Shown piece after piece: positions 11,247-59,487 of a stretch of 64,000 nt of DNA (the first letter of the stretch is position 1; every line of letters starts with the position of its first letter). The notes below the pieces were generated by a model. It was not told where the DNA came from, did not search any database, and was given only the letters and a program-made list of their open reading frames with translations. Source of the stretch: Bdellovibrio bacteriovorus (GTDB lineage Bacteria > Bdellovibrionota > Bdellovibrionia > Bdellovibrionales > Bdellovibrionaceae); the NCBI RefSeq assembly GCF_002208115.1, contig NZ_CP020946.1, positions 2,232,001 to 2,296,000 on the forward strand, in the 5' to 3' direction. Made by a program: the position numbers and the translations under genes.

Positions 11247-11265
11247 ACTCCGGTTGTACCGGAGT
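11247..11265 (-). promoter_or_regulatory. Leader hairpin containing the thrS ribosome binding site
   Basis: A 7-bp stem (11247-11253 with 11259-11265, loop 11254-11258) lies just upstream of thrS. The only GGAG-like ribosome binding sequence lies in this stem, 13 bases before the ATG (7 bases before an in-frame ATT). Folding would hide it, which suggests translational control; this is inference. Confidence 0.4.
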
Positions 11266-11364
11266 CAGAAAGGGTCGTCGCAGAATGCGCCGTACTGGTT
11301 TGAAAATGTGATGAATAATTATGCATTTGCATCACATTAGTAGTAATCCCCCACCCTCAAGGGG

Positions 11365-12057
11365 TCAAGCACTCACCGCAAGAAATTGCACACCAATAAT
11401 CTGTTCTCCTTCGGGCGAACAGGCGACCCAGCGGACCTGAGATTCCACAGACACCCAGACACCGTGCTGGTTCTTGTACATCAAACTAATGAAGTCCTTT
11501 TTCTGGACAGGTTCCTGCCCCAGGGAGATCTGCGCCCCGCCTTGGGAAAAGTCTACCATATGCCCTTCACGCAGGAACTGCACCCACGCCCCGGTCGGCG
11601 AACTTTCGGCCATCACGGACTTCTTTAACATCACCGGCGAACTGACGATCATGCGATCCTGCTTGCGGCTTTTTAAGCTCTCACCATTTAGGCGACGCGT
11701 CACAAGCTGTTCTATGCGTTCGCGTTCAGACTCCCTCAGGACAAGGATGTCCGGGCGATTCAGAATAAGTTGATGTACAGAGTTTTCAATATGTTGGGCG
11801 ATAAAAATAAACGACGCCTTTACTTGTGAATGGCTCCAGCTAAGAAAGGCCTGAACAGCACGCAGACTGAGGTTTTCGGTGCGAATAATCACGTGAAGAT
11901 CCCCTTTTGAAGATTGAAGTGTTTCCTTAAGTTCAGCCGCACTTCGCGACCGATACCAGCGCACACCCCGCAGTCTTTGCAGATACAGTGGCAGATGCTG
12001 GCTCGAACTGAGATAAATAAGGTCCTTAAAACGCTCATTGGGCATAAGGGACTTCAT
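11365..12057 (-). CDS. PilZ-domain protein (probable cyclic-di-GMP receptor)
   Basis: A 230-residue protein. The C-terminal half has the two PilZ signatures that bind cyclic di-GMP: an RxxxR motif (RKQDR, about residue 131-135) and DFSQGG (about residue 168-173) in the D/N-x-S-x-x-G pattern, followed by beta strands ending near the C-terminus. The N-terminal 120 residues have alternating strands and helices like a degenerate receiver domain; I see no clear phosphoacceptor motif, so this part is uncertain. It would act as a cytoplasmic effector of cyclic di-GMP signalling; its output partner is unknown. It is separated from thrS by about 130 bases and faces a divergent gene at 12238. Confidence 0.75.
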   Translation of the reverse strand: MKSLMPNERFKDLIYLSSSQHLPLYLQRLRGVRWYRSRSAAELKETLQSSKGDLHVIIRTENLSLRAVQAFLSWSHSQVKASFIFIAQHIENSVHQLILNRPDILVLRESERERIEQLVTRRLNGESLKSRKQDRMIVSSPVMLKKSVMAESSPTGAWVQFLREGHMVDFSQGGAQISLGQEPVQKKDFISLMYKNQHGVWVSVESQVRWVACSPEGEQIIGVQFLAVSA

Positions 12058-12237
12058 TGCAAAACGGAAGCCCGCGGATCAGCCCCGTCTATATTTGAGA
12101 TCACCGTATAGCCCGTGGACAGTCGTATAGAATGCTTTAAACAACATTGTTAAATTACTGATTTACCTCAGCAAAAATACAAATGAACATCTTTGAATAT
12201 TGCTCATAAAAACCCAACCCTTTTCAAGGAGAAGCAC

Positions 12238-12603
12238 GTGAAATCGATCCTTATGGCAAGCGCCGCATTCCTGGCAATGACCTCTTTTGCAATCGCGGAA
12301 GAACCCAGCATGGCCGACAAAGCCGGTGCCCAAATGGAAAAAGCCGGCGAAGCCACCAAAGACGCCATGAACAAGGCCGGAGACAAAACCAAAGAGATGT
12401 ATAAAGACGCCGAAGTCGGCACAAAAAAAGCCGCCCGCAAAGCCAAACGAACCGCGAAGAAAACCATGAACCGCGCCGAAGAAGCCGTATGCATGGATGG
12501 CGACATGAAGTGCGCGGCCAAGAAAGCCGGCAATCGTATGGAAGAAGGCAAAGACGCCACCGTCGACGCCGTGAAGGATGCTTCCGACACACTGAAGAAG
12601 TAA
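12238..12603 (+). CDS. Small exported Lys/Ala-rich helical protein
   Basis: A 121-residue protein. The start is GTG at 12238, set by AAGGAGAAGCAC directly upstream and by the signal peptide (KSILMASAAF...SFAIA, cleavage before EEPS). The mature part is dominated by Lys, Ala, Asp and Met, with repeated amphipathic helix segments (AGAQMEKAGE, ATKDAMNKAG, DKTKEMYKDA) that resemble LEA-like or apolipoprotein-like repeats. It has two Cys about 9 residues apart (VCMDGDMKCAA). It probably acts in the periplasm or outside the cell; I do not recognise a function. A terminator follows. Confidence 0.75.
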   Translation: MKSILMASAAFLAMTSFAIAEEPSMADKAGAQMEKAGEATKDAMNKAGDKTKEMYKDAEVGTKKAARKAKRTAKKTMNRAEEAVCMDGDMKCAAKKAGNRMEEGKDATVDAVKDASDTLKK

Positions 12604-12625
12604 TCCCCCGAAGTCCTGAAAAAGA

Positions 12626-12656
12626 AAACGACCGGCTTTCAAACCGGTCGTTTATT
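12626..12656. terminator. Bidirectional terminator between convergent genes
   Basis: A 10-bp stem (12626-12635 with 12644-12653) with T-rich sequence on the plus-strand side and A-rich sequence before it, serving the 12238 gene and probably the convergent cysteine-repeat gene. Confidence 0.8.
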
Positions 12657-12682
12657 TTATTCAGATTAGGGAAGCCCGCGAA

Positions 12683-13246
12683 CTATCGACATTGCTGAGC
12701 CACTTCCCGCAGCTCTGAAATCTCGTCGCACTCAAACCTCGACAGACGCGAACACACGTAATCAATACAGGACACATCCACCACACCCCGACAAAGCCCG
12801 GCAACTTCAAAGACCTCGACCTTTTCATCGCAGGCAAAACGCGACATGCGACTGCAAATGCTGGTCACACAAGGCCCACTGACATTGCGACAAGCCCGGG
12901 TGACTTCATACATGTCATCCTTGTCGTCACAATCAAAGCGACTAAGCTGCTTGCACACAGCCTCAACACACCGACCAGGAAATCCCCCACCCCCACCACT
13001 GTCCGGAGGACAATTCGGAGGCCGGTTCGGCGGCGGATTGCCAGGGTTGTTAGGAGAATCCGGCGGATACTGTTCCGGCGGTAAAGGCCGAGGCGGATTC
13101 CCCAGCACAGAGACCCACAGGTCTTTAGCAGCATAATACTGGTCCACTAGCTGCTGAGTTTTGTCGCCAGTTTTAGGCGAAGCCGCCAGCGAATCCACGG
13201 TCGTTAAGAGCAACAAGATCACAAGCACAGAGAGCAAGTTTCCCAT
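12683..13246 (-). CDS. Exported protein with three cysteine repeats after a Pro-rich linker
   Basis: A 187-residue protein. The ATG at 13246 is supported by GGAGGACGT directly upstream and by a signal peptide (hydrophobic LLSVLVILLLLTTV, cleavage near LAA-S). After a short domain comes a Pro/Gly/Asn-rich linker (about residues 50-85), then three tandem repeats of about 30-33 residues with the pattern C-x3-5-C-x2-4-SRF-x-CD-...-EV-x2-4-C. The four Cys per repeat could form two disulfides each after export. I know no family that matches. It is the first gene on the far side of the long-hairpin repeat at 13384-13660. Confidence 0.7.
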   Translation of the reverse strand: MGNLLSVLVILLLLTTVDSLAASPKTGDKTQQLVDQYYAAKDLWVSVLGNPPRPLPPEQYPPDSPNNPGNPPPNRPPNCPPDSGGGGGFPGRCVEAVCKQLSRFDCDDKDDMYEVTRACRNVSGPCVTSICSRMSRFACDEKVEVFEVAGLCRGVVDVSCIDYVCSRLSRFECDEISELREVAQQCR

Positions 13247-13383
13247 ACGTCCTCCACACAGCCCAAGCATCTGCCAACACAAATCAGAAACAACTAAAGA
13301 CACCAAATAAGGCCAAAATACAGATCCAGCCCCCAACGATTGACACACCGTAGGTGTAAAAAATCACCAGGCACCTTCTCTCC

Positions 13384-13660
13384 CCCGCCCCCGAGCGGGC
13401 GCCTTTCACCAAAGGTGAAACAGCCAGAAGGTATTCGAGGCGGCAATGAAGCACCACGATGCTGGATAAGAGCACGAGGCTGGCGGAGTGGGGGCCTTGG
13501 CCCTCAAAACCGAGTTCCGCAGCACCTGAAAAAAACTGCCGTAGTAATCAGAAGAGTAAAAAGAATAAAAAAAGGGAGCCAAGATAGGCTCCCTTTGTGC
13601 GAGGACTGCCTGAGCGTTTTGAGGGCCAAGGCCCCCACTCCGTCAGCCGACCACGTGCTA
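13384..13660. repeat. Long-hairpin intergenic repeat, copy A
   Basis: This fills most of the 415-base gene-free stretch 13247-13661. Visible parts: a C-rich tract (13381-13392); a small hairpin with a 7-bp stem and AAA loop (13404-13420) followed by CAGCC; then a long inverted repeat with 27 identical complementary bases (13484-13510 and 13616-13642). The complementarity continues outward, less perfectly, to about 13471 and 13659. Inside the arms are CCGAGTTCCGCAG (13510-13522), GCGAGGACTG (13599-13608) and, at the centre, the actF terminator. The right arm ends at the actF stop codon. The two inner motifs recur in copy B (37328-37460). Confidence 0.75.
13571..13596 (-). terminator. Terminator of the act operon
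   Basis: A perfect 10-bp stem (13571-13580 with 13587-13596, loop of 6) followed on the minus strand by a T-rich tail (complement of 13561-13570). It is positioned to end transcription after actF and sits inside the loop of repeat copy A. Confidence 0.85.
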
Positions 13661-13661
13661 C

Positions 13662-14864
13662 TTAGTAAGCAACGTGGTGGTTCAGCGCTTCGTGCATTCT
13701 TGGGTCTTTCAACGGAACCAAAGAGTGCTTAGACCAGAAGGACATGATTGTCAGAAGGAACGCACCCGCGAAACCAGCGAAGATGCCGATTTCCCAGAAT
13801 CCGAAGGTCACGTGACCGTCGAAGAAGTTCGGGTAAACCATCCAGTAGATGTCCACGTATTGCATTACCAATACCAAGACAGAGATCAACAACACGTTGT
13901 TGTCGTTGCGTTTCATTCCACGAGGCAAAAGTGCCAGGAACGGAACCACGAAACGGAAGATCAGAAGAGCCATGGAGATGCTCATCCAGCCGCCTTGAGC
14001 GCGCGCGATGTAGTACTCAGTTTCCTCAGGGATGTTAGCGTACCAGATCAACATGAACTGAGAGAACGCAATGTAAGCCCAGAAAATGGAGAAACCTTTA
14101 AGGTATTTCACCACGTCGTGCTGGTGCTCTTCAGTCACATAACCTTTAACCAAACCAGAGCGTCTCATCAAAACGATAACGATCGCCAGGAATGCCATGC
14201 CCGCCTGGAACATACCAGAGAAGCCATAGATACCAAAGATGGTGGAATACCAGGTTGGCAGCAAGGACATCAACAGATCCACGCAGAACAAAGAGAACAT
14301 CAAAGCGTAGAACACGATGAAACCAACAGACGGAGCCACAGACTTCGTCGTCAAAGACTCGTCACCGGACTTGTCTTGTTTCAAAGAGTTGCCCACGATC
14401 ACATGACGGAAGATCATGCAGCCGACCGCAAAGATGAACAGACGAATCACGAAGCCACCCATGTTCAGGTAGCCGGTTTTCGCCGCGATCACCGGATTTG
14501 CAGCCACCACCTCTGGGTTCGCCCAAGGGTAAAGGTGCTTGAAACCAACCAACAGAACCAAACCACCGATTAGAATCGCCGGAAGGAAGGACGTAGTTGC
14601 TTCAGCATAACGACGGATGGACACGGACCAGCCGGCTTTAGCCACGTTGTTGATTACGATCCAGAACAAACCACTCAAGGCCAGGCAAGAGAAGTAGAAA
14701 TAGGACACCAGATAAGAAGTCCACAATCTGTCCTGATTTTTCATAAGACCGATCACGAAAGTCAAAAGACCGATCGCGATCAGGGCGAAGCTCAGCGTTT
14801 TCAATTTCGCTGGAGCTTCAAATTTCGATACATGCAGATTCACATGATGATTGCTTGCGCCCAT
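13662..14864 (-). CDS. actF: Alternative complex III subunit ActF (NrfD-like membrane protein)
   Basis: A 400-residue, very hydrophobic protein with about ten membrane helices and a cytoplasmic C-terminus, the second NrfD-family subunit of the operon. In alternative complex III, ActC and ActF are the membrane cores involved in quinol oxidation and possibly proton movement; ActF is the shorter one and the last gene, as here. It starts 7 bases after actE. A strong terminator follows about 65 bases downstream, and no cytochrome oxidase genes follow in this window. Confidence 0.85.
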   Translation of the reverse strand: MGASNHHVNLHVSKFEAPAKLKTLSFALIAIGLLTFVIGLMKNQDRLWTSYLVSYFYFSCLALSGLFWIVINNVAKAGWSVSIRRYAEATTSFLPAILIGGLVLLVGFKHLYPWANPEVVAANPVIAAKTGYLNMGGFVIRLFIFAVGCMIFRHVIVGNSLKQDKSGDESLTTKSVAPSVGFIVFYALMFSLFCVDLLMSLLPTWYSTIFGIYGFSGMFQAGMAFLAIVIVLMRRSGLVKGYVTEEHQHDVVKYLKGFSIFWAYIAFSQFMLIWYANIPEETEYYIARAQGGWMSISMALLIFRFVVPFLALLPRGMKRNDNNVLLISVLVLVMQYVDIYWMVYPNFFDGHVTFGFWEIGIFAGFAGAFLLTIMSFWSKHSLVPLKDPRMHEALNHHVAY

Positions 14865-14871
14865 TTACAAC

Positions 14872-15453
14872 CTACTTAGCTTCTTGCTTCTCTAGGAAGC
14901 GGATATAGTTAACAACCTGCCAGCGGTACTGCTGAGGAATGTGGGAAGCATAAGGACCCATCACACCCTGACCCACTGTGATCACATGATAAAGGTGACC
15001 ATCGGTCCAGCCTTTAACCTTGTCGCTCACAACTGCAGGCGGCTTCAAAGCCATTTTTGCAGAGATGGTGGACTTCGCAGCCTCACCGCCTTCACCTTTG
15101 TAACCATGACAAAGAGCACAGTTGGTCTCGTAGAATTTCTGACCTACGATCAAAGTCTCTTCGTCCATTTTACCAGCCAGTGGATTTTTCAGATTCTTGG
15201 AAGCTGCTTCCACGTCGGTAGCATACTGGTACGGTTCAAAACCAACCGGAGCTGTCCCTTCCGGAGGAACACGCATACCACGGTGATGAGGAGCATCCGC
15301 ATCGTAGGACTGAGCCTTCACGGCCGGAGTCACCATCATATCCTGGATCAATTCCACATTCGGCTTGTTGCCACGAGGACCGCAGCTGGACAACGCCAGA
15401 ACAGCCAATCCCGCTGCTGCAACACCCATTGAAATATTCACGATGTTTCTCAT
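14872..15453 (-). CDS. actE: Alternative complex III subunit ActE (mono-heme cytochrome c lipoprotein)
   Basis: A 193-residue protein with an N-terminal signal ending in a lipobox (LSSC, Cys about residue 24) and one heme c site, CALCHG (about residue 118), within a cytochrome c domain that extends to a distal Met candidate (GVMGPY). ActE accepts electrons in the periplasm and passes them to downstream carriers or an oxidase. It lies between actD and actF in the standard order and depends on the ResB/CcsA pathway encoded just upstream for heme attachment. Confidence 0.88.
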   Translation of the reverse strand: MRNIVNISMGVAAAGLAVLALSSCGPRGNKPNVELIQDMMVTPAVKAQSYDADAPHHRGMRVPPEGTAPVGFEPYQYATDVEAASKNLKNPLAGKMDEETLIVGQKFYETNCALCHGYKGEGGEAAKSTISAKMALKPPAVVSDKVKGWTDGHLYHVITVGQGVMGPYASHIPQQYRWQVVNYIRFLEKQEAK

Positions 15454-15457
15454 CTTA

Positions 15458-15981
15458 CTAGTACTCCGTCTTCTTCACTTCAGTTGCGCCAAGCTCTTTG
15501 AACATAGATTCAATTTTAGCTTCGTCGTAACCGTTGTCATTGTGCGGGATAAAGATAGCGAACTTGTGGCAGCTTAGATCCGGATCGATCACCGGTGGAT
15601 CCATGCGCGGAATACCGCAGGCATAGAACAAAGCCCCTACTGAAGAAAGCGCCGACAACAAAATCGTCAATTCGAACATGATAGGTACAAACGCAGGCAA
15701 GCTGAAGAACGGCTTACCACCCACGTTCACCGCCCAGTTCACAGCAGATGTCCAGTAAGTCAATGCAAGACCACCAGCCAAACCAGCCAGACCCATAGTG
15801 AATGCCACGTAAGGAATCCAGGAGCGTTTGATACCCGCTGCTTCTTCCATTCCGTGAATAGGATAAGCAGAGATCGCTTCAAACTTCGTGAAACCGGACT
15901 CACGCACTTTGCGGGTCGCTTTCAGAATTTGAGCCTCTTCCAACCAGATACCAGCAATACCTTTTGTATATTTAGCCGCCA

Positions 15982-15982
<1 letters not shown>
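15458..15982 (-). CDS. actD: Alternative complex III subunit ActD (DUF3341)
   Basis: A 174-residue protein with a soluble N-terminal part, two membrane helices in the middle (about residues 58-80 and 98-125), and a short C-terminal soluble part. This matches ActD, a structural membrane subunit of alternative complex III with no redox centre. Its start overlaps the actC stop by one base (TAATG), indicating translational coupling. Confidence 0.85.
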
Positions 15983-17339
<1,357 letters not shown>

Positions 17340-48276: not shown

Positions 48277-48310
48277 AAATACATCTTATTTCGGAGTCAG
48301 TAATTCCTGA

Positions 48311-48331
48311 ATTGATAACCCGTTTATCAAT
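48311..48331. promoter_or_regulatory. Candidate operator: perfect palindrome upstream of the 48422 gene
   Basis: ATTGATAA (48311-48318) and TTATCAAT (48324-48331) are perfect inverted copies separated by five bases. On the minus strand it abuts AATGAGAATC, which resembles a Fur half-site. It lies about 25 bases upstream of a candidate -35 sequence. The regulator is not known. Confidence 0.4.
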
Positions 48332-48354
48332 AGATTCTCATTAGATTTCAAAAG

Positions 48355-48383
48355 TTGACCCCTGCCCGCTTTAATTTTAGAAA
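48355..48383 (+). promoter_or_regulatory. Candidate promoter of the 48422 gene
   Basis: TTGACC (48355-48360) and TAGAAA (48378-48383) with 17 bases between them, about 39 bases before the ATG. The -10 match is only fair. Confidence 0.35.
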
Positions 48384-48421
48384 CCACGCCAGTTCATTAA
48401 AACCTCAATTTAGGAGAAAAC

Positions 48422-48922
48422 ATGAAAAAATTCGTACTGGCACTAATGATGGTTCTTCCGTTCTCTGCACAAGCCAACCAAGACCTGGTTCTTGATGGCG
48501 AAAGATGGTTGGCAAAATTCACAGCTTACGTTTGTGACGATGGCAACACTCAAACAGCCACTCCGGTTGATATCTCTTCCCGCAACATCATCTTCACCAC
48601 TGCATCTGCAGACTACTCTTTGGACAACATCCTTCTTAAGGCGACTTACACAGAAGGTGACTCCACTTGCAACTACAGCACTTTGATGTTGGCAGACAAC
48701 GCTCTTTGGACAGTTTCTTTGGTTAACTCCAAAGCTTATGCAACTTCCGGCACCTCTGACTGCTCTGCTGGTAAAGCTTACCTTGATCAATTGCTGGCGA
48801 AAAACGACTACAAATACCTTCACGGTCGCGTCGCGGTTTACGTTCCAGTTTCTGACGCTCAAGACCTGTGCGATTCTGACAAAGTGGGTATCCACATCCA
48901 GGTTACTGGCCGCGTAAAGTAA
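48422..48922 (+). CDS. Small exported protein of unknown function
   Basis: A 166-residue protein with a signal peptide (KKFVLALMMVLPFSAQA, cleavage before NQDL) and a strong ribosome binding site (TAGGAG). The mature part is beta-rich with four Cys (YVCDD, STCNY, SDCSA, DLCDS), likely two disulfides. It has no recognised family. Its codons look like those of highly expressed genes (GCT, GTT, TTC). A palindrome and candidate promoter precede it and a terminator follows, so it is probably transcribed alone. Confidence 0.7.
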   Translation: MKKFVLALMMVLPFSAQANQDLVLDGERWLAKFTAYVCDDGNTQTATPVDISSRNIIFTTASADYSLDNILLKATYTEGDSTCNYSTLMLADNALWTVSLVNSKAYATSGTSDCSAGKAYLDQLLAKNDYKYLHGRVAVYVPVSDAQDLCDSDKVGIHIQVTGRVK

Positions 48923-48951
48923 TTTTACCGTCACCCTGACTGGTAAACCTC

Positions 48952-48987
48952 AAAAACTCCCATACCTAAACGGATGGGAGTTTTTTT
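48952..48987 (+). terminator. Terminator after the 48422 gene
   Basis: An 8-bp stem (48956-48963 with 48974-48981) with preceding A-run and following T-run. Confidence 0.88.
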
Positions 48988-49122
48988 ATTCCCAAGCCTC
49001 CCTCACAAAGACCCTCCAATATTTTCTCAATACGCTTACATCCACTCTGAAAACTTGCCCCCTCTGTCGCCCCATATTAAAACCAACCGATCCTAAATGA
49101 CTCTTATTTGCAGGAAGACTTT

Positions 49123-50427
49123 GTGAACGGACGGCTTTTTAAAATTCTCTATAAAATCCACATATATGTGGGCATTTTCGTGGCCGTACATCTGTTCGTT
49201 CTGATCCTGACCGGAACCGTGCTGATTCTGAAGGACGAAATTGAAGGCAATGCAGGTCACGGCGAAGAACACCACGCCGAGGTGATTCCTGCCATGGACG
49301 TCCACCTGGAAAAAATCCTGCAAAAGTACCCTGGGGACCGCCCGCAATCCTTCAACATCGAAGAGGCCGACCACGATGTCGCGCAACTTCGCATGGGTTA
49401 TAACGGCGCAAAACTTTTCCGTGAATCCCACCGCGTGTATTTCAACGTGCACACAGGTGAAGAGGTCTCTGCCCCGAAAAAATCTGACGGCGTGATGGAC
49501 TTCATCCTGCGCCTGCACCGGGAGTTCCTGCTGGGTTCCAACGGCAAACTGTATGTCGGCTTGATCGGCGTGCTTTATGCCTTCACTTTGCTTTCCGGAT
49601 TCTTTATCTACGGAAACTTTGCGCGCAAAACAAATTTCGGCGAAGTTCGTCGCGGTTCCACCCGCGCCACCATGGGTGATCTGCACCGCTTTATCGGCAT
49701 GACCGCCTTTGCGTGGAGCTTGATGATCGGCGTGACCGGATCGTTCCTGGGCTTTTCCTCCACCCTGATCAAAGTCTTTCAGTACAGTGAACTGCAAAAG
49801 CTGAACGTTCAGTATCCAACAGCTCCGCAGGCGCCGCTGGCGTCTGTGGACAAGGTGATCGCTTCGGCGCAAAAAGCGCTGCCGGAATCCACCTTCGACT
49901 TCATGGTGTTCCCGGACACGCAGTTCTCGCCTCCAGGCCACTTCATGGTGCTGATGCATGGAAACACGCCGATGACCGAGCGTCTGGTGGAACTGGTCAT
50001 CATTGATGGCGTCACCGGTGAACTGACCGAAGTGCGTCAGCTTCCGTGGTATCTGAAAGTGGCGATGCTGTCAGAGCCTCTGCATTTCGGAAACTATGGC
50101 GGTCTGTTCCTGAAAATTTTGTGGGTGATTCTGTCTGTGGCCTCCTTAGTGATGCCGGTGTCTGGAATTTACATCTGGTGGAACCGTCGTCGCAAAAAAG
50201 CACCCGCCCCTGCTGCCAAAGCCACTTCCGTGCAGCCATGGAAAGGGGCCCTGTTTAAAAAAATCTACACCGTGCCGGTGATCCTGTCCGTGTTTTCGAC
50301 TGCGGCGGTGATCGGAAGCTTCCTGATTCAGGGGGCTCTGAACACGGTATTCGTGGCCGCTCTTGTCGTTCCCGTATCCATCGTCGTTTACTTCCTGATC
50401 TCGTGGTTGAAAAAGGGAGCTCAATGA
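49123..50427 (+). CDS. PepSY-associated membrane protein (probable siderophore-iron reductase)
   Basis: A 434-residue membrane protein starting at GTG 49123 (CAGGAAG upstream). It has the PepSY-TM layout: a first helix with IHIYVGIFVAVHLFVLILTG, a periplasmic domain with PepSY repeats (residues 50-135 and 235-320), further helices with HRFIGM and a C-terminal helix pair (VLSVASLVMPVSGIYIWW). Conserved His residues in the helices could bind heme. In iron clusters, PiuB-like proteins of this family are thought to reduce ferric siderophores. It is the first gene of the siderophore operon and overlaps the next by four bases. Confidence 0.75.
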   Translation: MNGRLFKILYKIHIYVGIFVAVHLFVLILTGTVLILKDEIEGNAGHGEEHHAEVIPAMDVHLEKILQKYPGDRPQSFNIEEADHDVAQLRMGYNGAKLFRESHRVYFNVHTGEEVSAPKKSDGVMDFILRLHREFLLGSNGKLYVGLIGVLYAFTLLSGFFIYGNFARKTNFGEVRRGSTRATMGDLHRFIGMTAFAWSLMIGVTGSFLGFSSTLIKVFQYSELQKLNVQYPTAPQAPLASVDKVIASAQKALPESTFDFMVFPDTQFSPPGHFMVLMHGNTPMTERLVELVIIDGVTGELTEVRQLPWYLKVAMLSEPLHFGNYGGLFLKILWVILSVASLVMPVSGIYIWWNRRRKKAPAPAAKATSVQPWKGALFKKIYTVPVILSVFSTAAVIGSFLIQGALNTVFVAALVVPVSIVVYFLISWLKKGAQ

Positions 50428-51611
50428 AGAAACTGAGCGCCCTGGGACATTTAAACACCACCACTTTCAGCGCCATCCAGATGATGACCTTCACCTTGAT
50501 TCCGTTCATCGCGGAAAAAGGGAGTTTGAGTTTATCTTCTGTGGTGCTGAGTTTCAGCGTGGGCAGTTTTTTGTTCCTGTGGTCCAGCCCCTTCTGGGCA
50601 TCTCGCAGTGACAACTGGGGCCGCTTGAAGGTTTTGTCTGTCGGCATGCTGGGACTTTTCATTTCCACCGCTATTCTGACCGCTGTGCTGATGTCACCGG
50701 GGGCTCACTGGGTGAATGAGCTGGCCGTATGGGGCAGTCGCCTGCTTTACGGTCTGACCGCCGCTGCGATCGTGCCGGTGTCCCAGGCTTTGCAGATTGA
50801 TCAGCACCCGGAACAAACTCCATTAAAATCCATGCTGTCCAATTCCATGAGCCTGAATGTCGGCCGCGCTTTGGGGCCGTTGTACCTGCTTTTGGGTGGT
50901 GGCTCCAACATGCTTCTGGTTTTGCAAAGCACGACGGCGTGGGCGTTGGTGGTATTTGGCTTAAATTTACTTGGCATCACACAATCCGAAGCTCCGAAGG
51001 CCACAAAAACTGAGCGCATTTCTTTGGTTGAGTGGAAGTCCGCTTTGCACCACATCGCCGATATTTTTTCCCTGGCAATCTTGTTCACAAGCTTTGTGGG
51101 CATCTTGAATTTCTCTTTGGCTTCCATCTTGAAAAAATCTTTCGATCTGACTTCGGTGGATTCCAGTGTCCTGATGGCAAAATTGCTTTTGGTCAGTGCG
51201 ATTCTGGCTGTGGTTACCCAAGCCCTGGGTAAAGTTCTTTTCAAAAATCCATGGCAAGGCGCCATGATCGTGGGCGTAGCCACCTTGTTCGGTGCAAGTC
51301 TGATCTTGGGTCACTTGGGTGGCTGGCCACAACTGTGGGTGGCGATTGTTCTGTTGTCTGTGGGGCTTTCCCTGATTCCACCGTGCTACATGGCTTTGAT
51401 GGCCACACGCGGACCTGAAATGCAGTTTGGCCGTCGTGCCGGGCTGGCAGCAGCTGCCAACACTTTGGGTTACACCTTGGGTGGCGGCTTGGCGGCTTTG
51501 ACTTTTAAAATGGATCTTTTCGGCATTGAAAGTGTGATGACCGCGTTGGTTGTGGTCATGGCCCTGAACATTGCCCTTCTTTACAGACGTCGCGAGGCGG
51601 TCTATGCATAA
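50424..51611 (+). CDS. MFS transporter (probable siderophore exporter, ShiF-like position)
   Basis: A 395-residue protein with about twelve membrane helices and a Major Facilitator loop motif (WASRSDNWGRLK, about residue 60). It starts at ATG 50424 overlapping the previous stop (ATGA) and ends 8 bases inside iucA. In enterobacterial aerobactin islands an MFS gene (shiF) sits just upstream of iucA, so export of the siderophore is the likely role; this rests on position. Confidence 0.75.
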   Translation: MKKLSALGHLNTTTFSAIQMMTFTLIPFIAEKGSLSLSSVVLSFSVGSFLFLWSSPFWASRSDNWGRLKVLSVGMLGLFISTAILTAVLMSPGAHWVNELAVWGSRLLYGLTAAAIVPVSQALQIDQHPEQTPLKSMLSNSMSLNVGRALGPLYLLLGGGSNMLLVLQSTTAWALVVFGLNLLGITQSEAPKATKTERISLVEWKSALHHIADIFSLAILFTSFVGILNFSLASILKKSFDLTSVDSSVLMAKLLLVSAILAVVTQALGKVLFKNPWQGAMIVGVATLFGASLILGHLGGWPQLWVAIVLLSVGLSLIPPCYMALMATRGPEMQFGRRAGLAAAANTLGYTLGGGLAALTFKMDLFGIESVMTALVVVMALNIALLYRRREAVYA

Positions 51612-53355
51612 CTTCAAAGAACTTTCCCTGAAACACACGGTCTCTTGCTTTATGAATTCCCTGTTCCGGGAATATCAGAATTTTTCTTTTGAAGCAGGAA
51701 CCACCCCGGAAAAAACCGCTGTCATTTCGGTGGATCTGGAAAATGGCATGGAGGTTCTGATCCCGTTAAGCAAAAAATCCCTGTTGGGGCGCCACGAATA
51801 TGTCGGCACCTTCTATCTGCGCCAGGGTGCTGAACTGAAATCCGTGGACTTCAATCAGGCCGTGAATGAGCTTTTGACCTTCCTGTGCAAACACTGGGAA
51901 CAGGATCTTTCCAAAAAAGACCTGTTCATGGGGCGCCTGGAAAACAGTCTGCACAACATGGAGCTTTCCCTGAAAGCCCGTGAAAAAGACATCGAACACA
52001 TCTATTCCGGCAAAGTCAGCTTTATCGAAGCCGAACAGGGCCTGATGGTCGGTCACAACTTCCACCCCTATCCAAAAATGCGCGAAGGTTTTGATGACCG
52101 CGATTTTAAGATTTACTCGCCAGAAATGGGCGGCCACTTCCCGCTGCACTGGTTCTTTGTAAAGCCCGAAGTTCTGCATGTGCAAACCGCGGAAGCCTTT
52201 GCCACCAAGAACTGGACTGAGAAGCTGTTCCAGGCCGAAGGCGCGGGCCGCATCCCTGAGGGCTTCATCGCATTCCCCGTTCACCCCTGGCAGCGTCAGC
52301 ACCTGCTGAAAAATGCCACTGTTCAGTCCTATTTTGAAAAGGGTCTGATTGTGGACGCCGGCGCGCCTTCCACAAAAAGCTGGCACCCGACGTCTTCGCT
52401 GCGTTCGATCTATGGTGCTCACAGCCCGTACATGCTGAAGTTTTCTTTGACCGTGCGACTGACAAACTCCATCCGTCATCTGACCGATGTGGAAGTCGTG
52501 CGCGGCCTGCAAGTGTACGATGTGATGTCGACCACCGTCGGAAAGAAATTCCTGAACGAAAATCCGCAGTTTGAAGTGATCTTTGAACCAGCCTTCGCCG
52601 CACTGAAAACCGCCGATGGCAAAGTCATCAACGAAAGCATCGTGGTCTGCCGGGAAAATCCGTTCCAGCAGGAAATCCCGGGCGAAGAAAATATCGTGGT
52701 TTCCACACTGGCCCAGGACAATCCGTTGGGTGGCGAGACCCTGATCTGGAAACAGGTGCAGAAGCTTGCGAAAGACTCCGGTAAAAACCTGAAAGACGCC
52801 AGCCGCGAATGGTTTAAGCACTATATGCAAGTGGCACTGCAGCCGTTTATCACAGCCCAAAGCGAATACGGTATTTTGCTGGGCGCGCATCAGCAGAACA
52901 TGATTTTGCGTATTTCCAGAAACCTCCCAGTCAAAGCGTACTTCCGTGATTGTCAGGGTACGGGCTACAGTGAACACGGCTACAATCTTTATCACCAAGA
53001 CGTGGCAAGCCTGACCCGTGAAAACGGCAATATTCTGGATAACAAGGGCAATATTCTTTTTGCTTACTATCTGCTGGTGAATTCAACCTGGAATATTCTG
53101 GCGGCCCTTTCACACCCTGAAGGAGCCAGCGAAGCTCAATTGACTGCCGACATGAATGATTTCATCAGAGGTCTGTACAAACCAAATCTGCCGGATACAA
53201 GTTTCCTGGATTATGTGACCAAAGATGCGCGCATCTGGCAAAAAGGTAATTTCATCTGCAGTCTGCAAAGCCTGAATGAAAACACCGTGGCCAACCCCTT
53301 AGCTATTTATAATTTGATCGACAACCCTATTTCTTTCTCTGGAGCCCTGTCATGA
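51604..53355 (+). CDS. iucA: NIS siderophore synthetase IucA-like
   Basis: A 583-residue IucA/IucC-family synthetase (about 574 in E. coli). Visible family motifs include GHNFHPYPKMREGF (about residue 150), FPVHPWQ (about residue 220), SLRSIYG (about residue 260), KFSLTVRLTNSIR (about residue 280) and the C-terminal HQQNMIL and YFRDCQG. IucA joins citrate to the first N6-acetyl-N6-hydroxylysine using ATP in the cytoplasm. The ATG at 51604 overlaps the MFS gene. It is followed by iucB with a four-base overlap. Confidence 0.88.
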   Translation: MHNFKELSLKHTVSCFMNSLFREYQNFSFEAGTTPEKTAVISVDLENGMEVLIPLSKKSLLGRHEYVGTFYLRQGAELKSVDFNQAVNELLTFLCKHWEQDLSKKDLFMGRLENSLHNMELSLKAREKDIEHIYSGKVSFIEAEQGLMVGHNFHPYPKMREGFDDRDFKIYSPEMGGHFPLHWFFVKPEVLHVQTAEAFATKNWTEKLFQAEGAGRIPEGFIAFPVHPWQRQHLLKNATVQSYFEKGLIVDAGAPSTKSWHPTSSLRSIYGAHSPYMLKFSLTVRLTNSIRHLTDVEVVRGLQVYDVMSTTVGKKFLNENPQFEVIFEPAFAALKTADGKVINESIVVCRENPFQQEIPGEENIVVSTLAQDNPLGGETLIWKQVQKLAKDSGKNLKDASREWFKHYMQVALQPFITAQSEYGILLGAHQQNMILRISRNLPVKAYFRDCQGTGYSEHGYNLYHQDVASLTRENGNILDNKGNILFAYYLLVNSTWNILAALSHPEGASEAQLTADMNDFIRGLYKPNLPDTSFLDYVTKDARIWQKGNFICSLQSLNENTVANPLAIYNLIDNPISFSGALS

Positions 53356-54329
53356 ACATCCAATTCTCCACTTATGCCTGCGCCACTGGCCAGGCGTTTA
53401 ACGTACAAATCGAAAGCACAACGGGCCTTCTGAAAACGGACAAAGTTCAAGTCCCTTTCAAAGTTTCTGTCGACGGCGACAATGCCACCCTGACTGCTGA
53501 AACCGCTTCAGGTGTTGAGTCTTTGGCGATTCTGGAAGCACTCTTTAACAAAAACACTTCGTTGCAGTCTGTGACAGTCACCAACTCCAACCCGGAACTG
53601 CAAACCCTGGTGGGTGCGAAAGCGTCTCCGTTTGCCGTGTCCCGTGATGAATTTTTCCAACTGCGCCCTCTCTGGGTTCACAGTGGATTGACGGCGTTGA
53701 CTCCGGAAAAATGGACCGTCACCAAAGAAGTGGCCCACCCGGTTCGCCCGGCAATCACTGAAGGTCAGATTCTTTACCGCCGCACACTGGCTGACGGCAA
53801 AGTTTTGACTTTCCGTGTGGCGCATATCGAAAAAGACCTGGATATTTTCCACGAATGGCACAATCAGCCGCGCGTGTTGAAGTTCTGGGAGCTGGACAAA
53901 CCCAAAGAAGAACTGCGTGATTACCTTGCAAAGGGTCTGAAAGACGGCCACCAGTTCCCTACGATTCTGGAATTCGACGGCGTCCCAGTCGGATACTTTG
54001 AGATGTACTGGACCAAAGAGGATCGCCTGGGACCTTACTATGATTCCGAGGCCTTTGACCGTGGTTTCCACTTCCTGATCGGCGACGTCAGCGTGCTGGG
54101 CTTTGCCAACACCGACGCGATCTTGAAGTCCGTGTGCCATTACCTGTTCCTGGAAGAGCCTCGCACCCGTAAAATCATGGCCGAGCCACGCTCGGACAAC
54201 GTGAATGTTCTGAAGTATCTGGAAACTTTCACAGCGTGGAAGAAACTCAAAGAATTCGATTTCCCTCACAAGCGTGCGGCGTTGCTGGAATGCCGTCGTG
54301 AAGCCTTCTTCGGGGGTCGTTACCTATGA
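53352..54329 (+). CDS. iucB: N-hydroxy-amine acetyltransferase IucB-like
   Basis: A 325-residue GNAT protein of the IucB/RhbD/AlcB type: a divergent N-terminal half, then the family motif FHEWHNQPRVLKFWEL (about residue 175), GVPVGYFEMYW (about 215) and GFHFLIGDV-like core ending in EPRSDNVNVLKYLE. In aerobactin synthesis it acetylates N6-hydroxylysine from acetyl-CoA. It overlaps both neighbours by four bases (ATGA), showing tight coupling. Confidence 0.88.
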   Translation: MNIQFSTYACATGQAFNVQIESTTGLLKTDKVQVPFKVSVDGDNATLTAETASGVESLAILEALFNKNTSLQSVTVTNSNPELQTLVGAKASPFAVSRDEFFQLRPLWVHSGLTALTPEKWTVTKEVAHPVRPAITEGQILYRRTLADGKVLTFRVAHIEKDLDIFHEWHNQPRVLKFWELDKPKEELRDYLAKGLKDGHQFPTILEFDGVPVGYFEMYWTKEDRLGPYYDSEAFDRGFHFLIGDVSVLGFANTDAILKSVCHYLFLEEPRTRKIMAEPRSDNVNVLKYLETFTAWKKLKEFDFPHKRAALLECRREAFFGGRYL

Positions 54330-56074
54330 GTTCGCAGGCCGACTGGAAAAACATCAATCTGCAGATGATTGCAAAAAGTCTGCAGGAACTCACCTATGAA
54401 CAGGTGATCAGCCCCGTGGCCACCACCACGCGGGATGAATCCGTCGTCGGCCCTTATGAACTGACTTTGGCCAATCAGGCTGTTTACAAATTCAACGCGT
54501 GGCGCGGCCTTTGGACGGATCTGAAAGTCGATCCGGCGTCCATCACGCGCAATGGTGTTCCTGCTGAAAGTGCGGGCCAGTTCTTTATCGACAGCCAAAA
54601 AGAAACCGGCATGGATGACATTATCCTCGCTAATTTCCTGGAAGAAATGCACAACACTCTTTATGCGGACTTGCGTGTTCTTGAGCTGAACCGCCGGGTT
54701 TCTTCAGACGACATGACCAAATTCAGCGGCGAAAAAGTTCAGACCTTTCTAAAGGGGCATCCGAAAATCCTGCTGAATAAAGGCCGCATCGGCTGGAGTG
54801 CCGCAGATCAGGATCTTTACGGACCTGAAAACGCCAAACCGGTTCAGTTTTACTGGTTGGCGGTGCGCAAAACCCAAACTCTGGAAGGACTGGATGCCCG
54901 CCTTTCCTGGGATGACGTTTTGAACGAATGCCTTTCGGACAAAACGGCATTTGAAAAAGAGCTGGCCGCAAAAAACATCGCAAAAACCGAATACCACTTT
55001 GTCCCGGTTCATCCGTGGCAGTGGGACCGCTATATCAAAATTCAGTATGGAACGGATCTGGCCTGCGGTCACATTCACCTCCTGGGTGCGTTCGGAGATG
55101 AATACCTGCCGCAGATCAGTCTGCGCACGTTCAGCAATATCACCCGCCCCGGCAAGCTTGATATCAAACTTCCGATCACGATTCTGAACACTTCCGCCAT
55201 TCGTGGGATTCCGGGCAAGTACATGCAGCAAGGTCCTTCCTTGAGCACTGCCCTGACCGAGCTTTGCCAAAAAGATGACATCCTTCAAGGGGTCACCGTG
55301 CTGGAGGAAAAAGCCGGGCTGTCGGTCAGCCATGGCCTGTACAGCCAGATCGGCCAAGCCCCTTACCGCTATAACGAACTTTTGGGAGTGTTGTGGCGCC
55401 AAAGCTCGGACTTCCACCTTGCTGAAGGCGAAACCGCCATTATCGCTGGCAGTCTATTTCATCGCGACACCATGGGTAAGTCGCTGCTGGGCGCTTACGC
55501 CAAAGCGTCAGGGCTTGATATTGGCCAGTGGCTTTCCCAGTACTTTGAAAAAGTCTTTATCCCGCTTTACCACCTGCAGGCCCGTTATGGGATCGGCTTG
55601 GTGGCCCATGGGCAGAACGTGGTCATCCGTCTGAAAAACTCCACACCGGTGGGGGTCTTCCTGAAAGATTTTCAGGGGGATCTGCGCCTGAGTGATGACT
55701 CTGGCTCTCTTTCCGGCTTCGATCTGACCCGATTACCGAGACATTATCTGATTCATGATCTTTTGACTGGTCATTTAGTAACGGTATTACGTTTTATCTC
55801 TGAAACTTTGCAAGAATGCGATACATATCCCGAGATTGAATTCTATGCCGTTTTGGGTAGGACCCTGGAGTCCTATCTGGCGAAAAATCCGGAGATCAGA
55901 GCTTTGAACTATTTTGGCAAAATCGACCTTCTTCAGAACACCTTCCACCGCGTTTTGGTGAACAAAGTCCGCTTCAAAATCGGCTATGCGGATTCTGCCG
56001 AGCGCCCGCTGCCGATCCTGGGTGAAGATCTGAAAAACCCCGTGGCATTAGCTCTGAAAAAGGGGCGCGTATGA
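54326..56074 (+). CDS. iucC: NIS siderophore synthetase IucC-like
   Basis: A 582-residue IucA/IucC-family synthetase, matching IucC (580 in E. coli). Motifs: FVPVHPWQWDRY (about residue 230), LPQISLRTFSNI (about residue 265), KLDIKLPITILNTSAIRG (about residue 280), and AHGQNVVIRL followed by FLKDFQGDLRL near residue 430. It would add the second acylated hydroxylysine to the citrate half-product and complete the siderophore. The second synthetase type, next to IucA, argues for a citrate core. Confidence 0.88.
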   Translation: MSSQADWKNINLQMIAKSLQELTYEQVISPVATTTRDESVVGPYELTLANQAVYKFNAWRGLWTDLKVDPASITRNGVPAESAGQFFIDSQKETGMDDIILANFLEEMHNTLYADLRVLELNRRVSSDDMTKFSGEKVQTFLKGHPKILLNKGRIGWSAADQDLYGPENAKPVQFYWLAVRKTQTLEGLDARLSWDDVLNECLSDKTAFEKELAAKNIAKTEYHFVPVHPWQWDRYIKIQYGTDLACGHIHLLGAFGDEYLPQISLRTFSNITRPGKLDIKLPITILNTSAIRGIPGKYMQQGPSLSTALTELCQKDDILQGVTVLEEKAGLSVSHGLYSQIGQAPYRYNELLGVLWRQSSDFHLAEGETAIIAGSLFHRDTMGKSLLGAYAKASGLDIGQWLSQYFEKVFIPLYHLQARYGIGLVAHGQNVVIRLKNSTPVGVFLKDFQGDLRLSDDSGSLSGFDLTRLPRHYLIHDLLTGHLVTVLRFISETLQECDTYPEIEFYAVLGRTLESYLAKNPEIRALNYFGKIDLLQNTFHRVLVNKVRFKIGYADSAERPLPILGEDLKNPVALALKKGRV

Positions 56075-57348
56075 GTGAAAACAAACACTACGACCTGATC
56101 GGTATCGGCATTGGTTTGTTCAACCTGAGTCTGGCGGCCTTGCTAAGCAAGACTCCGGATGTGAAATTCCGCTTCTTTGATCGCAAGCACCGCTTTGACT
56201 GGCACTCTGAAATCATGTTCGCGGATTCTGAAATGCAGACGTCCTACATGAAGGATCTGGTAACGGCCGCTGATCCGACGAACCCATTCAGCTTCATGAA
56301 CTTCCTGGTTCAAAAGGGTTTGTTCTATGCGTTCCTGAACACCGGACGCCAGACGATCACCCGTCGTGAATTTGAAATGTACTGCCAGTGGGTCAGCCAG
56401 AACATGCCTGATCATCTGAGCTTTGACAGCGACATCGAGTCCGTCAACTATGACGGCAGCAAATTCATTCTGACCATCAATGGTGAAACTTTCACCGCCA
56501 CCAACATCTGCATCGGTACGGGCCTGGTCCCGCACCTGCCGGAATTTGCTGAAGCTCTGGAAGGACCGGACGTCTTTCACGCCAAATCCAGTTATCTGAA
56601 ACTGCTTGATGCCACCAACAAAGATGTTGTTGTCGTGGGCGGTGGTCAGACCGGTCTTGAAATCTTCCGCAACTGCCTGCAGGGCAAATGGGGAAATCCT
56701 AAAAGTTTGAAACTGATTGCCAGCCGTCCGAATCTGGAGCCGCTGGACAATTCTCCGTTTGTGAATGAATACTTCACCCCGGCTTATGTGAAGGAATTCC
56801 TGCAGTTGGGCCAGGATCAGAAAGATCCTATCGTGAAATATCAAAAACTGGCCAGTGACGGGAACACTCCGGAGTATCTGGAGACCTTGTACCGTGAGCT
56901 TTACCAGTTGAAACACGTCTGGGGTGACAAACGCGAGATCGAGATTCTGCCGTTCCGCCGCGTGACGGAGATGGCAAAAATCGGCGACCGCTACAAGCTG
57001 CACATCCAAAACGGCTTCAACGGGCAGTCCGAAACAGCCGCGGCTGACGCTGTGGTGCTAAGCACAGGCTTCCGCGTGAACATCCCGGCTTTGATTGATC
57101 CTTTGCGTCCGATGATCAATTTTGATCAGGACGGTCGCTTCCAGATGAATCAGGACTTCCAGGTTTCCTGGAATGGATCTGAAAACAATAAAATCTTTGC
57201 GCTGAACTTCAGCCGCCATGGTCACGGGATTTCTGAGCCCCAAACCAGTCTGATGGCATGGCGTTCAGCCCGTATCATTAACAACCTGACTAAAAAGAGC
57301 ATCTTTCCTATCGAGAAGGCTGTGCCCAACTTTATTACTTACATCTAG
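56071..57348 (+). CDS. iucD: L-lysine N6-monooxygenase IucD-like
   Basis: A 425-residue flavoprotein, the length of E. coli IucD. It has the FAD loop GIGIGLFNLS (residues 11-20), the substrate-region motif MQTSYMKDLV (about residue 52), the NADPH loop VVGGGQTGLE (about residue 190), DNSPFVNEYFTP and the C-terminal HGISEPQTSLMAWRSA. It hydroxylates the side-chain amine of lysine (or a related amine such as ornithine; sequence alone does not settle it) as the first committed step. No diaminopropane genes are nearby, which disfavours rhizobactin/schizokinen-type substrates. Confidence 0.88.
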   Translation: MSENKHYDLIGIGIGLFNLSLAALLSKTPDVKFRFFDRKHRFDWHSEIMFADSEMQTSYMKDLVTAADPTNPFSFMNFLVQKGLFYAFLNTGRQTITRREFEMYCQWVSQNMPDHLSFDSDIESVNYDGSKFILTINGETFTATNICIGTGLVPHLPEFAEALEGPDVFHAKSSYLKLLDATNKDVVVVGGGQTGLEIFRNCLQGKWGNPKSLKLIASRPNLEPLDNSPFVNEYFTPAYVKEFLQLGQDQKDPIVKYQKLASDGNTPEYLETLYRELYQLKHVWGDKREIEILPFRRVTEMAKIGDRYKLHIQNGFNGQSETAAADAVVLSTGFRVNIPALIDPLRPMINFDQDGRFQMNQDFQVSWNGSENNKIFALNFSRHGHGISEPQTSLMAWRSARIINNLTKKSIFPIEKAVPNFITYI

Positions 57349-57357
57349 AGAGAAACA

Positions 57358-59487
57358 ATGAAACGCATCATCACACTTCTGACTGTCTTCCCGCTGATTC
57401 TGAACGCCCAGACTCCGGCCAATGAAGGGACCTCAACAGAGGAATCCTCCACTCTGGAGGCCGTGCAGGTTCAAGGGACTAAAGAAAACAAATCCTATCA
57501 GGAAAGCACCGAAAGTATTTCTGTGGTTCCCGGTCGCGAACTGGATTCCCCGATTCAGTCTGATTCCATCCAGGCCCTGAATGCGGTTCCCAACGTTTCC
57601 ATCAACAAAAACGATGACAGCTTCAGTATCCGTGGTGTGAACAACACGGGTGTGACCGGATTCCAGAAAGACAACCTGTCCTCTATTTTGGTGGATGATG
57701 TTTTCCAGACGGATCTGGCGGTGAAAGCCGGCAGCTTCGATTTGTGGGATGTCCAGCAGGCGGAAGTGTACCGCGGCCCTCAGTCCACCACCCAAGGGGT
57801 AAACTCTTTGGCTGGCAGCATTTTGCTTTTCCATAACAAGCCAGCAGATCAGACCGAAGGCGCGGCAAAGCTGGGTTATGGAAGCTTCAACCGCATCGAA
57901 GCGGGTGTGATGACCAACAACGTATGGCTGGATGGAAAACTGCTAAGCCGCGTGTCAGTGAATCACGAGCAGGGTGATGGTTTCATCAAGAACATCAAAA
58001 CTGACAACAACAAATGGGGCAAAAAGTCCAAAGACCATCTGGGTCTGGATCTGACCTACAAAATCAACGAAACTGACTATGTTCGCTGGAACACCAAGAT
58101 CATGCAGAATGAAACTGGTGGCAACTATGTGCAAAGCGCCAACCCGTTTGACTATGAAGTTAACGAGGACGTGGACTTTGACAGCAAAACCACCAACCAA
58201 CAGACCAGCCTGCGCTATTTCGTTAAGCTGAACGACAACTGGACGAATGAAGTCATCGGCGCCTATTCTCAGGCGAAAAACGATGAAACCAGCGATGCCG
58301 ATGGCACTGCCAACCCGACTGCGGGTGTTCGTACGGAAGAACACAACGACCGTTTCGTCAGCGTGGAAAACCTATTGAAATTCCAGAACGAAAAAGTGAA
58401 AAACGTCCTGGGCTTCCATGCGCATGATTACTATTTGAAGGACAACGCCAGATTCGACATCCTGTACCCCCTTTCCGCGTCCGTTTACACTCCAATTGCT
58501 TCAAGTCAGGTGACGGACAAGTATCGCACCGTATTCGCCCTGTTTGATTCATACCTGTGGAAATTCACTGAAAACCAGTCCATTAATCTGGGCCTGCGCT
58601 ATGAATTTGTAAAAAACAAATACGGCGCGGACGTCTCTGCCACCCGCAAACAGAATCTTGGTGCCGGCACCAATGCCGCGGTCGATGCTTATCTGGACAG
58701 CGTGACTGGCAGCTATGAAGACGAAGAAAACAACTCGATTGTGCTTCCTAAGGTGGCGTACATGCTGACTCAGGATCAGCACAGCTACGGCATCTCTTAC
58801 ACCGAAGGTTATCGCACCGGTGGTTTGTCCATCAACCGCAAGCGCGTTCGTGTTGACAGCTACGACCCGGAAAAAACCGGCAACTATGAGCTGTCTTACA
58901 AGTATGCGGCCTCCAACTGGAACTTCAGCTCCGCGGCTTTCTACACGGACTGGAAAGACCAGCAGGTCATGGTTCAGTTGTCGAACGACCCGTTTGACAC
59001 TCAAGTGGTCAATGCGGCGAGCTCGGAACTTTATGGTGCCGAAGCTGAAATAAACTGGAAGCCGGCGTCCCGTCATGAATTCAATCTGGGCGGGGGTTAT
59101 GTAAAAACACGCTTCAAAGACTTTGTGAACGGCAGCAAGGATTACACGGACAATGAATTCCCATTTGCGCCCAACTGGACCGGACGCCTGTCTTACGGTT
59201 ATCAAATCAGCCAGGACTGGAATGCTGCAGGTATCTTCAGATATTTGAGCAAATCCTATGGTAATGCGGAAAACACGATGGATTCACCGGAACAGTTCTA
59301 TCTGGATCTGCTGGGGCAGTATTCATTGGCTGCCTGGAGCATGAACGTGGATCTTTACGTGCGCAACGTCCTTGATACCCGCTATGTGATCTATGATCGC
59401 ACAAGCTCTATTGGCGGCCAGTCCGTCAGCTACAATCAGGTCAACTCACCACGTGAGCTGGGTCTGCGTCTGAATTATTTCTGGTAG
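57358..59487 (+). CDS. TonB-dependent siderophore receptor
   Basis: A 709-residue outer-membrane receptor: signal peptide (cleavage near LNAQ), a TonB box region (STLEAVQVQG), the plug domain (about 50-170, with SIRGVNNTG and EVYRGPQSTTQG), then a 22-strand barrel ending in an aromatic residue (LNYFW). It sits where iutA lies in aerobactin clusters, nine bases after iucD. By eye its plug and C-terminal motifs look closer to the FyuA-like group than to IutA, so I give no symbol. It should import the ferric siderophore made by the upstream genes. Confidence 0.85.
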   Translation: MKRIITLLTVFPLILNAQTPANEGTSTEESSTLEAVQVQGTKENKSYQESTESISVVPGRELDSPIQSDSIQALNAVPNVSINKNDDSFSIRGVNNTGVTGFQKDNLSSILVDDVFQTDLAVKAGSFDLWDVQQAEVYRGPQSTTQGVNSLAGSILLFHNKPADQTEGAAKLGYGSFNRIEAGVMTNNVWLDGKLLSRVSVNHEQGDGFIKNIKTDNNKWGKKSKDHLGLDLTYKINETDYVRWNTKIMQNETGGNYVQSANPFDYEVNEDVDFDSKTTNQQTSLRYFVKLNDNWTNEVIGAYSQAKNDETSDADGTANPTAGVRTEEHNDRFVSVENLLKFQNEKVKNVLGFHAHDYYLKDNARFDILYPLSASVYTPIASSQVTDKYRTVFALFDSYLWKFTENQSINLGLRYEFVKNKYGADVSATRKQNLGAGTNAAVDAYLDSVTGSYEDEENNSIVLPKVAYMLTQDQHSYGISYTEGYRTGGLSINRKRVRVDSYDPEKTGNYELSYKYAASNWNFSSAAFYTDWKDQQVMVQLSNDPFDTQVVNAASSELYGAEAEINWKPASRHEFNLGGGYVKTRFKDFVNGSKDYTDNEFPFAPNWTGRLSYGYQISQDWNAAGIFRYLSKSYGNAENTMDSPEQFYLDLLGQYSLAAWSMNVDLYVRNVLDTRYVIYDRTSSIGGQSVSYNQVNSPRELGLRLNYFW

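What the first reader, a model, noticed from the sequence alone, without database searches (positions are those of the whole stretch)
49123..59487. Complete aerobactin-type siderophore operon in a presumed predatory bacterium
Seven plus-strand genes, with the first six overlapping by 4-8 bases, encode a PepSY reductase-like protein, an MFS exporter, IucA, IucB, IucC, IucD and a TonB receptor. From the MFS gene on, this is the gene order of enterobacterial aerobactin islands (shiF-iucABCD-iutA). Lengths (583, 325, 582, 425) match the E. coli proteins closely. A predator that feeds inside other bacteria making its own citrate-hydroxamate siderophore would be notable, and it could also matter for competition with prey for iron. 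Codon use looks like the neighbours, so any transfer is not recent.
Basis: partly seen in the sequence, partly recalled or inferred. Interest (0 to 1): 0.75.

Follow-up and report, generated by a model that had tools for sequence, protein, structure and literature searches.

The report
Aerobactin-type siderophore operon in Bdellovibrio
A predatory bacterium that lives inside other bacteria carries a complete set of genes to make an aerobactin-like iron-scavenging molecule, paired with a different uptake route (iron stripped off between the two membranes) from the one E. coli uses; the gene set is widespread in its phylum and siderophore genes had already been flagged in passing, but not analysed, in papers on the genus.

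Summary
49123-59487 is a seven-gene operon: PepSY-MFS-IucA-IucB-IucC-IucD-TonB receptor. IucA and IucC best match the solved Klebsiella aerobactin synthetases. IucD groups with enzymes of iucABCD clusters, 100/100 apart from diamine hydroxylases, and has the residues that hold an amino acid's carboxylate (K61, N232). No diamine-making gene is nearby. The product is therefore predicted to be aerobactin or an N-acyl variant. The import half differs from the enterobacterial system: the receptor is not IutA, the genome has no FecCD-type siderophore permease, and the operon opens with a FoxB-like PepSY reductase. I infer periplasmic reduction, then Fe2+ entry through FeoB. The operon occurs in 12 of 24 species of the genus; IucC-profile matches occur in 51 of 369 Bdellovibrionota genomes. 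At this chromosomal site the 11.2-kb block is present only in the window strain and two genomes of the sizes of HD100 and Tiberius; 15 other species examined lack it there, including seven that carry it elsewhere. Siderophore genes were already mentioned for this strain (RAST) and a cluster for strain LR3. This is a variant of a known system; production by the predator is untested.

The parts
49123..50427 (+). PepSY_TM inner-membrane ferric-siderophore reductase (FoxB-like), first gene of the operon
   Evidence: Pfam PF03929 3e-51; AlphaFold model (mean pLDDT 68) has FoxB 7abw as top Foldseek hit, E 5e-13, next unrelated entry 1e-2; His13, 132, 188 and 321 invariant in 25 homologues
50424..51611 (+). 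MFS transporter, probable siderophore exporter (distantly ShiF-like)
   Evidence: MFS_1 1e-21; about 25% identity, E about 1e-7, to the MFS gene beside enterobacterial iuc genes; no match in the rhizobactin locus
51604..53355 (+). IucA, type A NIS synthetase
   Evidence: Best solved structure is K. pneumoniae IucA 5jm7, E 2e-78 over residues 9-576, next 2e-20
53352..54329 (+). IucB, N6-hydroxylysine acyltransferase (GNAT)
   Evidence: Acetyltransf_8 6e-48; GNAT domain 38-43% identical to enterobacterial IucB and about 50-56% to alphaproteobacterial ones
54326..56074 (+). IucC, type C NIS synthetase
   Evidence: Best solved structure is K. pneumoniae IucC 6cn7, E 3e-116, next DesD 5e-69
56071..57348 (+). 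IucD, L-lysine N6-hydroxylase
   Evidence: Lys_Orn_oxgnase 2e-111; tree position; K61/N232 amino-acid signature
57358..59487 (+). TonB-dependent siderophore receptor, not IutA
   Evidence: TIGR01783 5e-39, below its curated cut-off; only background similarity to IutA, 30 bits; present in all 12 genus carriers
48277..59487 (.). Block (u48422 gene plus operon) present between u47365 and the histidine-kinase gene only in the window strain and the HD100- and Tiberius-sized genomes
   Evidence: The two flanking genes lie next to or near each other, without the operon, in all 15 other species of the genus examined
48422..48922 (+). Protein of 166 aa with signal-peptide-like start and no Pfam match, next to the operon in several species

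Best explanation
The operon makes, exports and recovers an aerobactin-type citrate-hydroxamate siderophore. IucD hydroxylates lysine at N6. IucB acylates the hydroxylamine, most simply with acetyl. IucA joins the first hydroxamate arm to citrate and IucC the second. The MFS protein probably exports the product and the TonB-dependent receptor brings the ferric complex into the periplasm. There, because the genome has no FecCD-type permease, the PepSY protein (FoxB-like, probably haem-bearing) reduces the iron. Fe2+ would then enter the cytoplasm through FeoB and the empty siderophore would be re-exported. Shown here by sequence: the enzyme families, the amino-acid-type active site of IucD, operon structure, lack of the ABC permease, presence of FeoB and the FoxB-like fold. 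Inferred: the exact acyl group, transport directions, the reductive route, expression, and use by the predator, most likely in the free attack phase or in host-independent growth.
For: IucA and IucC are far closer to the solved aerobactin synthetases than to any other NIS enzyme. IucD lies with iucABCD-type enzymes, separated 100/100 from the diaminopropane/cadaverine type. The substrate-carboxylate residues (SidA Lys107 and Asn293, roles in PMC7347517) are K and N in all 12 genus members and A and L in all 52 clusters with a diamine-making decarboxylase plus the one diamine-type cluster of the same phylum. There is no diaminobutyrate aminotransferase or decarboxylase near the operon. The PepSY protein is FoxB-like by family and fold; the operon-type PepSY occurs in 12 of 12 carriers, while the full-length PepSY proteins checked in non-carriers (G016, G013, G005) are only 21-25% identical. 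FecCD is absent from the genome while the same search finds it in 13 of 14 control genomes, and it is absent above cut-off in 11 of 12 carriers. FeoB is present. PepSY proteins reduce ferric siderophores in the periplasm in Pseudomonas and are required for hydroxamate use in Burkholderia (PMC10866019).
Against: No chemistry or expression data. IucB's acyl donor is not determined and its GNAT domain is nearer to alphaproteobacterial clusters than to enterobacterial IucB. K61/N232 shows an amino-acid substrate but does not by itself separate lysine from ornithine. No canonical Fur box was found upstream. Absence of FecCD does not exclude a single-subunit importer, including the MFS protein itself.
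Confidence: 0.72

Rival explanations
1. The product has the aerobactin skeleton but IucB adds a longer or different acyl group, giving an acyl-aerobactin instead of aerobactin.
For: The GNAT domain is about 50-56% identical to those of Ochrobactrum/Methylobacterium clusters but 38-43% to enterobacterial IucB; acyl variants of aerobactin-type siderophores are known from established work.
Against: No residue-level test of acyl specificity was made; the long form of the protein (325 aa) is like enterobacterial IucB (315 aa).
Confidence: 0.22
2. The MFS protein is an inner-membrane importer (RhtX/FptX-like) and the ferric siderophore is taken whole into the cytoplasm; the PepSY protein is accessory.
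For: MFS-type single-subunit siderophore importers exist (RhtX, FptX; cited in PMC10866019).
Against: The MFS protein has no match at 1e-5 in the S. meliloti rhizobactin locus, which holds an MFS-like gene upstream of the biosynthesis genes, but does match the MFS gene beside enterobacterial iuc genes; a FoxB-like reductase is the first gene of every genus operon.
Confidence: 0.12
3. A different hydroxamate: a diamine-based siderophore of the rhizobactin/schizokinen kind, with the diamine made elsewhere in the genome.
For: Pfam-level families are shared; the best solved-structure hit of IucD by score is a putrescine hydroxylase, probably because no enterobacterial IucD structure is among the hits.
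Against: IucD tree position and the K61/N232 signature; A-B-C-D gene order and no decarboxylase or aminotransferase nearby.
Confidence: 0.04

Closest known systems
Enterobacterial aerobactin cluster (iucABCD-iutA with a divergent MFS/shiF-like gene)
   Same: iucA-iucB-iucC-iucD order and overlaps, enzyme families and lengths; lysine-type IucD; receptor gene follows iucD; a distantly related MFS gene upstream of iucA
   Different: MFS gene co-directional inside the operon; receptor not IutA; FoxB-like PepSY reductase instead of the siderophore-interacting (SIP) reductase present in many of those clusters; no FecCD (FhuB-type) permease in the genome; about 34-40% protein identity
Rhizobactin 1021 / schizokinen clusters (rhb type)
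   Same: Two NIS synthetases, GNAT acyltransferase and monooxygenase
   Different: Those have diaminobutyrate aminotransferase and decarboxylase genes, the monooxygenase before the type C synthetase, and A/L instead of K/N in the monooxygenase; one such cluster exists in another Bdellovibrionota genome (L174)
FoxA-FoxB of Pseudomonas and FhuA-FhuB of Burkholderia (TonB receptor plus PepSY reductase)
   Same: Receptor and PepSY_TM reductase encoded together; hydroxamate ligands
   Different: Those serve foreign siderophores; here the reductase is in one operon with biosynthesis and an MFS transporter
Siderophore genes already reported in Bdellovibrio (RAST list for SSB218315, PMC5941755; siderophore cluster of strain LR3, PMC12843806)
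   Different: The main texts give no enzyme-level analysis, substrate prediction or distribution; supplementary tables could not be read

Membership tests
Aerobactin biosynthesis cluster (iucABCD) | Type A (IucA) and type C (IucC) NIS synthetases closest to the aerobactin enzymes | tested here: met
   Best solved structures IucA 5jm7 (2e-78) and IucC 6cn7 (3e-116), clearly ahead of the next
Aerobactin biosynthesis cluster (iucABCD) | IucD-type lysine N6-hydroxylase | tested here: met
   Tree and carboxylate-binding K61/N232; lysine against ornithine not separated by residues alone
Aerobactin biosynthesis cluster (iucABCD) | IucB acetyltransferase using acetyl-CoA | tested here: inconclusive
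   GNAT family and length fit; acyl donor not predictable; nearest GNAT domains outside the phylum by identity are alphaproteobacterial
Aerobactin biosynthesis cluster (iucABCD) | Gene order A-B-C-D without diamine-making genes | tested here: met
   compared with 80 loci from the genome collection
Aerobactin biosynthesis cluster (iucABCD) | Product is aerobactin | not testable with these tools
   Needs mass spectrometry
Enterobacterial aerobactin uptake (IutA with FhuBCD) | IutA receptor | tested here: not met
   Only background similarity, 30 bits in a direct comparison; no tblastn hit at 1e-5
Enterobacterial aerobactin uptake (IutA with FhuBCD) | FecCD-type (FhuB) permease | tested here: not met
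   No PF01032 match in the genome, found in 13 of 14 control genomes
FoxB/PiuB-type PepSY ferric-siderophore reductase | PepSY_TM region, two PepSY domains, conserved histidines, FoxB fold | tested here: met
   PF03929; two strand-bearing segments between helices in the model; four invariant His; FoxB top fold hit (moderate-confidence model)
FoxB/PiuB-type PepSY ferric-siderophore reductase | Ferric-siderophore reduction | not testable with these tools
   Needs biochemistry
Rhizobactin/schizokinen cluster | Diaminobutyrate aminotransferase and decarboxylase; diamine hydroxylase | tested here: not met

The most novel reading that the evidence does not exclude
Bdellovibrionota have their own long-established aerobactin lineage whose uptake half was rebuilt for a cell without siderophore ABC permeases: the ferric siderophore never crosses the inner membrane, iron is stripped by a dedicated PepSY reductase in the periplasm and the siderophore recycled, and the predator uses it in the attack phase or inside prey.
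Probability: 0.4. Interest if true: 0.6.

Novelty: new variant of a known kind. Interest (0 to 1): 0.4.

Why it matters
If the prediction holds, an intraperiplasmic predator makes and recycles its own aerobactin-type siderophore. That would let the finding that siderophore competition decides myxobacterial predation (PMC11388931) be tested in Bdellovibrio. It would also give a genetically simple case of aerobactin use without an ABC importer. Presence of the operon in only half of the species gives natural pairs of producers and non-producers.

Tried and rejected
Fur box: best 19-mer matches upstream of all 12 genus operons are no better than in shuffled sequence. A motif shared upstream, CAATASGYTTNCANC, is not enriched in the genome against a reversed control and its second perfect site is not beside recognisable iron genes. 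Recent transfer from enterobacteria: rejected, since proteins are only about 34-40% identical and the Bdellovibrionota IucD proteins form one branch (100/100) apart from the one diamine-type cluster. PepSY protein of G016 as a remnant of a lost operon: rejected, 25% identity and different surroundings. Diamine-type siderophore: rejected. A virulence plasmid was not needed as a yardstick; Pantoea and Cronobacter condimenti loci were used.

Full report
What is there. Overlaps are 4, 8, 4, 4 and 4 nt between the first six genes and the receptor begins 9 nt after IucD, so the seven genes read as one transcription unit. Pfam places every gene with strong support. GC and third-position GC are like those of the flanking genes.

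Which organism. The genome is one contig of 3,769,537 bp, the length published for Bdellovibrio bacteriovorus SSB218315, isolated from soil (PMC5941755). Two genus genomes carrying the same operon at the same site have the lengths that I know for HD100 (3,782,950) and Tiberius (3,988,594); these two names rest on length alone.

What it makes. IucA and IucC match the solved Klebsiella aerobactin synthetases far better than any other NIS synthetase. For the monooxygenase I built a tree of 71 sequences. All Bdellovibrio IucD proteins fall with enterobacterial, alphaproteobacterial and marine gammaproteobacterial enzymes from iucABCD clusters, apart (100/100) from those of clusters that contain a decarboxylase, which include the rhizobactin and desferrioxamine types. 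The tree contains only these two kinds of enzyme, so it says which kind and not more. Active-site residues agree. SidA Lys107 binds the substrate carboxylate and Asn293 also binds the substrate (PMC7347517). By alignment with the PDB relatives the matching positions in the window's IucD are K61 and N232; this mapping is mine. Over the aligned loci the first is K in every cluster without a decarboxylase and A in every cluster with one; the second is N (rarely D) against L. One Bdellovibrionota genome (L174) has a cluster of the diamine kind and shows A and L, a control within the phylum. The predicted product is therefore aerobactin or an acyl variant. The acyl group is open: the GNAT domain of IucB is closer by identity to alphaproteobacterial than to enterobacterial IucB.

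How iron is recovered. Here the operon departs from the enterobacterial model. The receptor is not IutA. No FecCD permease is found in the genome, although the same search rings in 13 of 14 control genomes, and 11 of the 12 operon carriers in the genus have none over the cut-off (the twelfth, G011, has two weak matches just over it). The first gene encodes a PepSY_TM protein; its AlphaFold model, of moderate confidence, finds FoxB first in the PDB (E 5e-13, next unrelated entry 1e-2), and four histidines are invariant in 25 homologues. FoxB-type proteins are ferric-siderophore reductases acting in the periplasm (PMC10866019; PMC8891985). FeoB is present. The simplest account is receptor, periplasmic reduction, Fe2+ import by FeoB and re-export of the siderophore. 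This route is inferred.

Distribution. Within the genus 12 of 24 species have the operon, always with the same seven genes. In the phylum 51 of 369 genomes match the IucC profile; this count includes some weak matches to other NIS synthetases. The IucD branches inside the genus agree with a RelA tree where the latter is resolved. Presence and absence need at least four changes on that tree as drawn (two forced by well-supported branches), so there have been repeated losses or gains.

The chromosomal site. In the window the block 48277-59487 (a gene for a 166-aa protein plus the operon) lies between u47365 and a histidine-kinase gene. In all 15 other species examined those two genes have no operon between them: the gap between the aligned ends is 1-35 bp in eleven, about 1 kb in three and 4.3 kb in one. 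These include seven species that carry the operon elsewhere. The block therefore most likely reached this site in the B. bacteriovorus lineage; its proteins are nevertheless those of the genus.

What was known. A RAST survey of this strain lists siderophores (PMC5941755) and a siderophore cluster is given for strain LR3 (PMC12843806). I found no functional study of a Bdellovibrio siderophore in the held library; most subscription papers are not held. Predator siderophores are known to matter in Myxococcus (PMC11388931).

Verdict. A real, complete, conserved operon; an aerobactin-type system with a replaced import half. Notable for the lifestyle, but not a new kind of system, and siderophore genes in this organism were already flagged in annotations.

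Noticed in passing
L174 (G061, same phylum), about 8960-17000: A diamine-type (schizokinen/rhizobactin-like) cluster with diaminobutyrate aminotransferase and decarboxylase, unlike the other Bdellovibrionota clusters examined.
   Followed up: partly
window 48422-48922: A 166-aa protein with a signal-peptide-like start and no Pfam match lies beside the operon in the B. bacteriovorus group and in G009, G019 and G001 at other chromosomal sites, so it seems to travel with the operon.
   Followed up: partly
window 49028-49042: A motif (CAATACGCTTACATC) recurs upstream of most genus operons (CAATASGYTTNCANC), apparently twice in some; not enriched genome-wide; role unknown.
   Followed up: partly
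L211 and L212 (G013): The RelA/SpoT-like protein is split over two reading frames in one small-genome relative.
   Followed up: no
L253 (G016) and L254 (G007): Full-length PepSY_TM proteins that are not orthologues of the operon's (25% in G016, no hit in G007), in genomes without iuc genes.
   Followed up: partly
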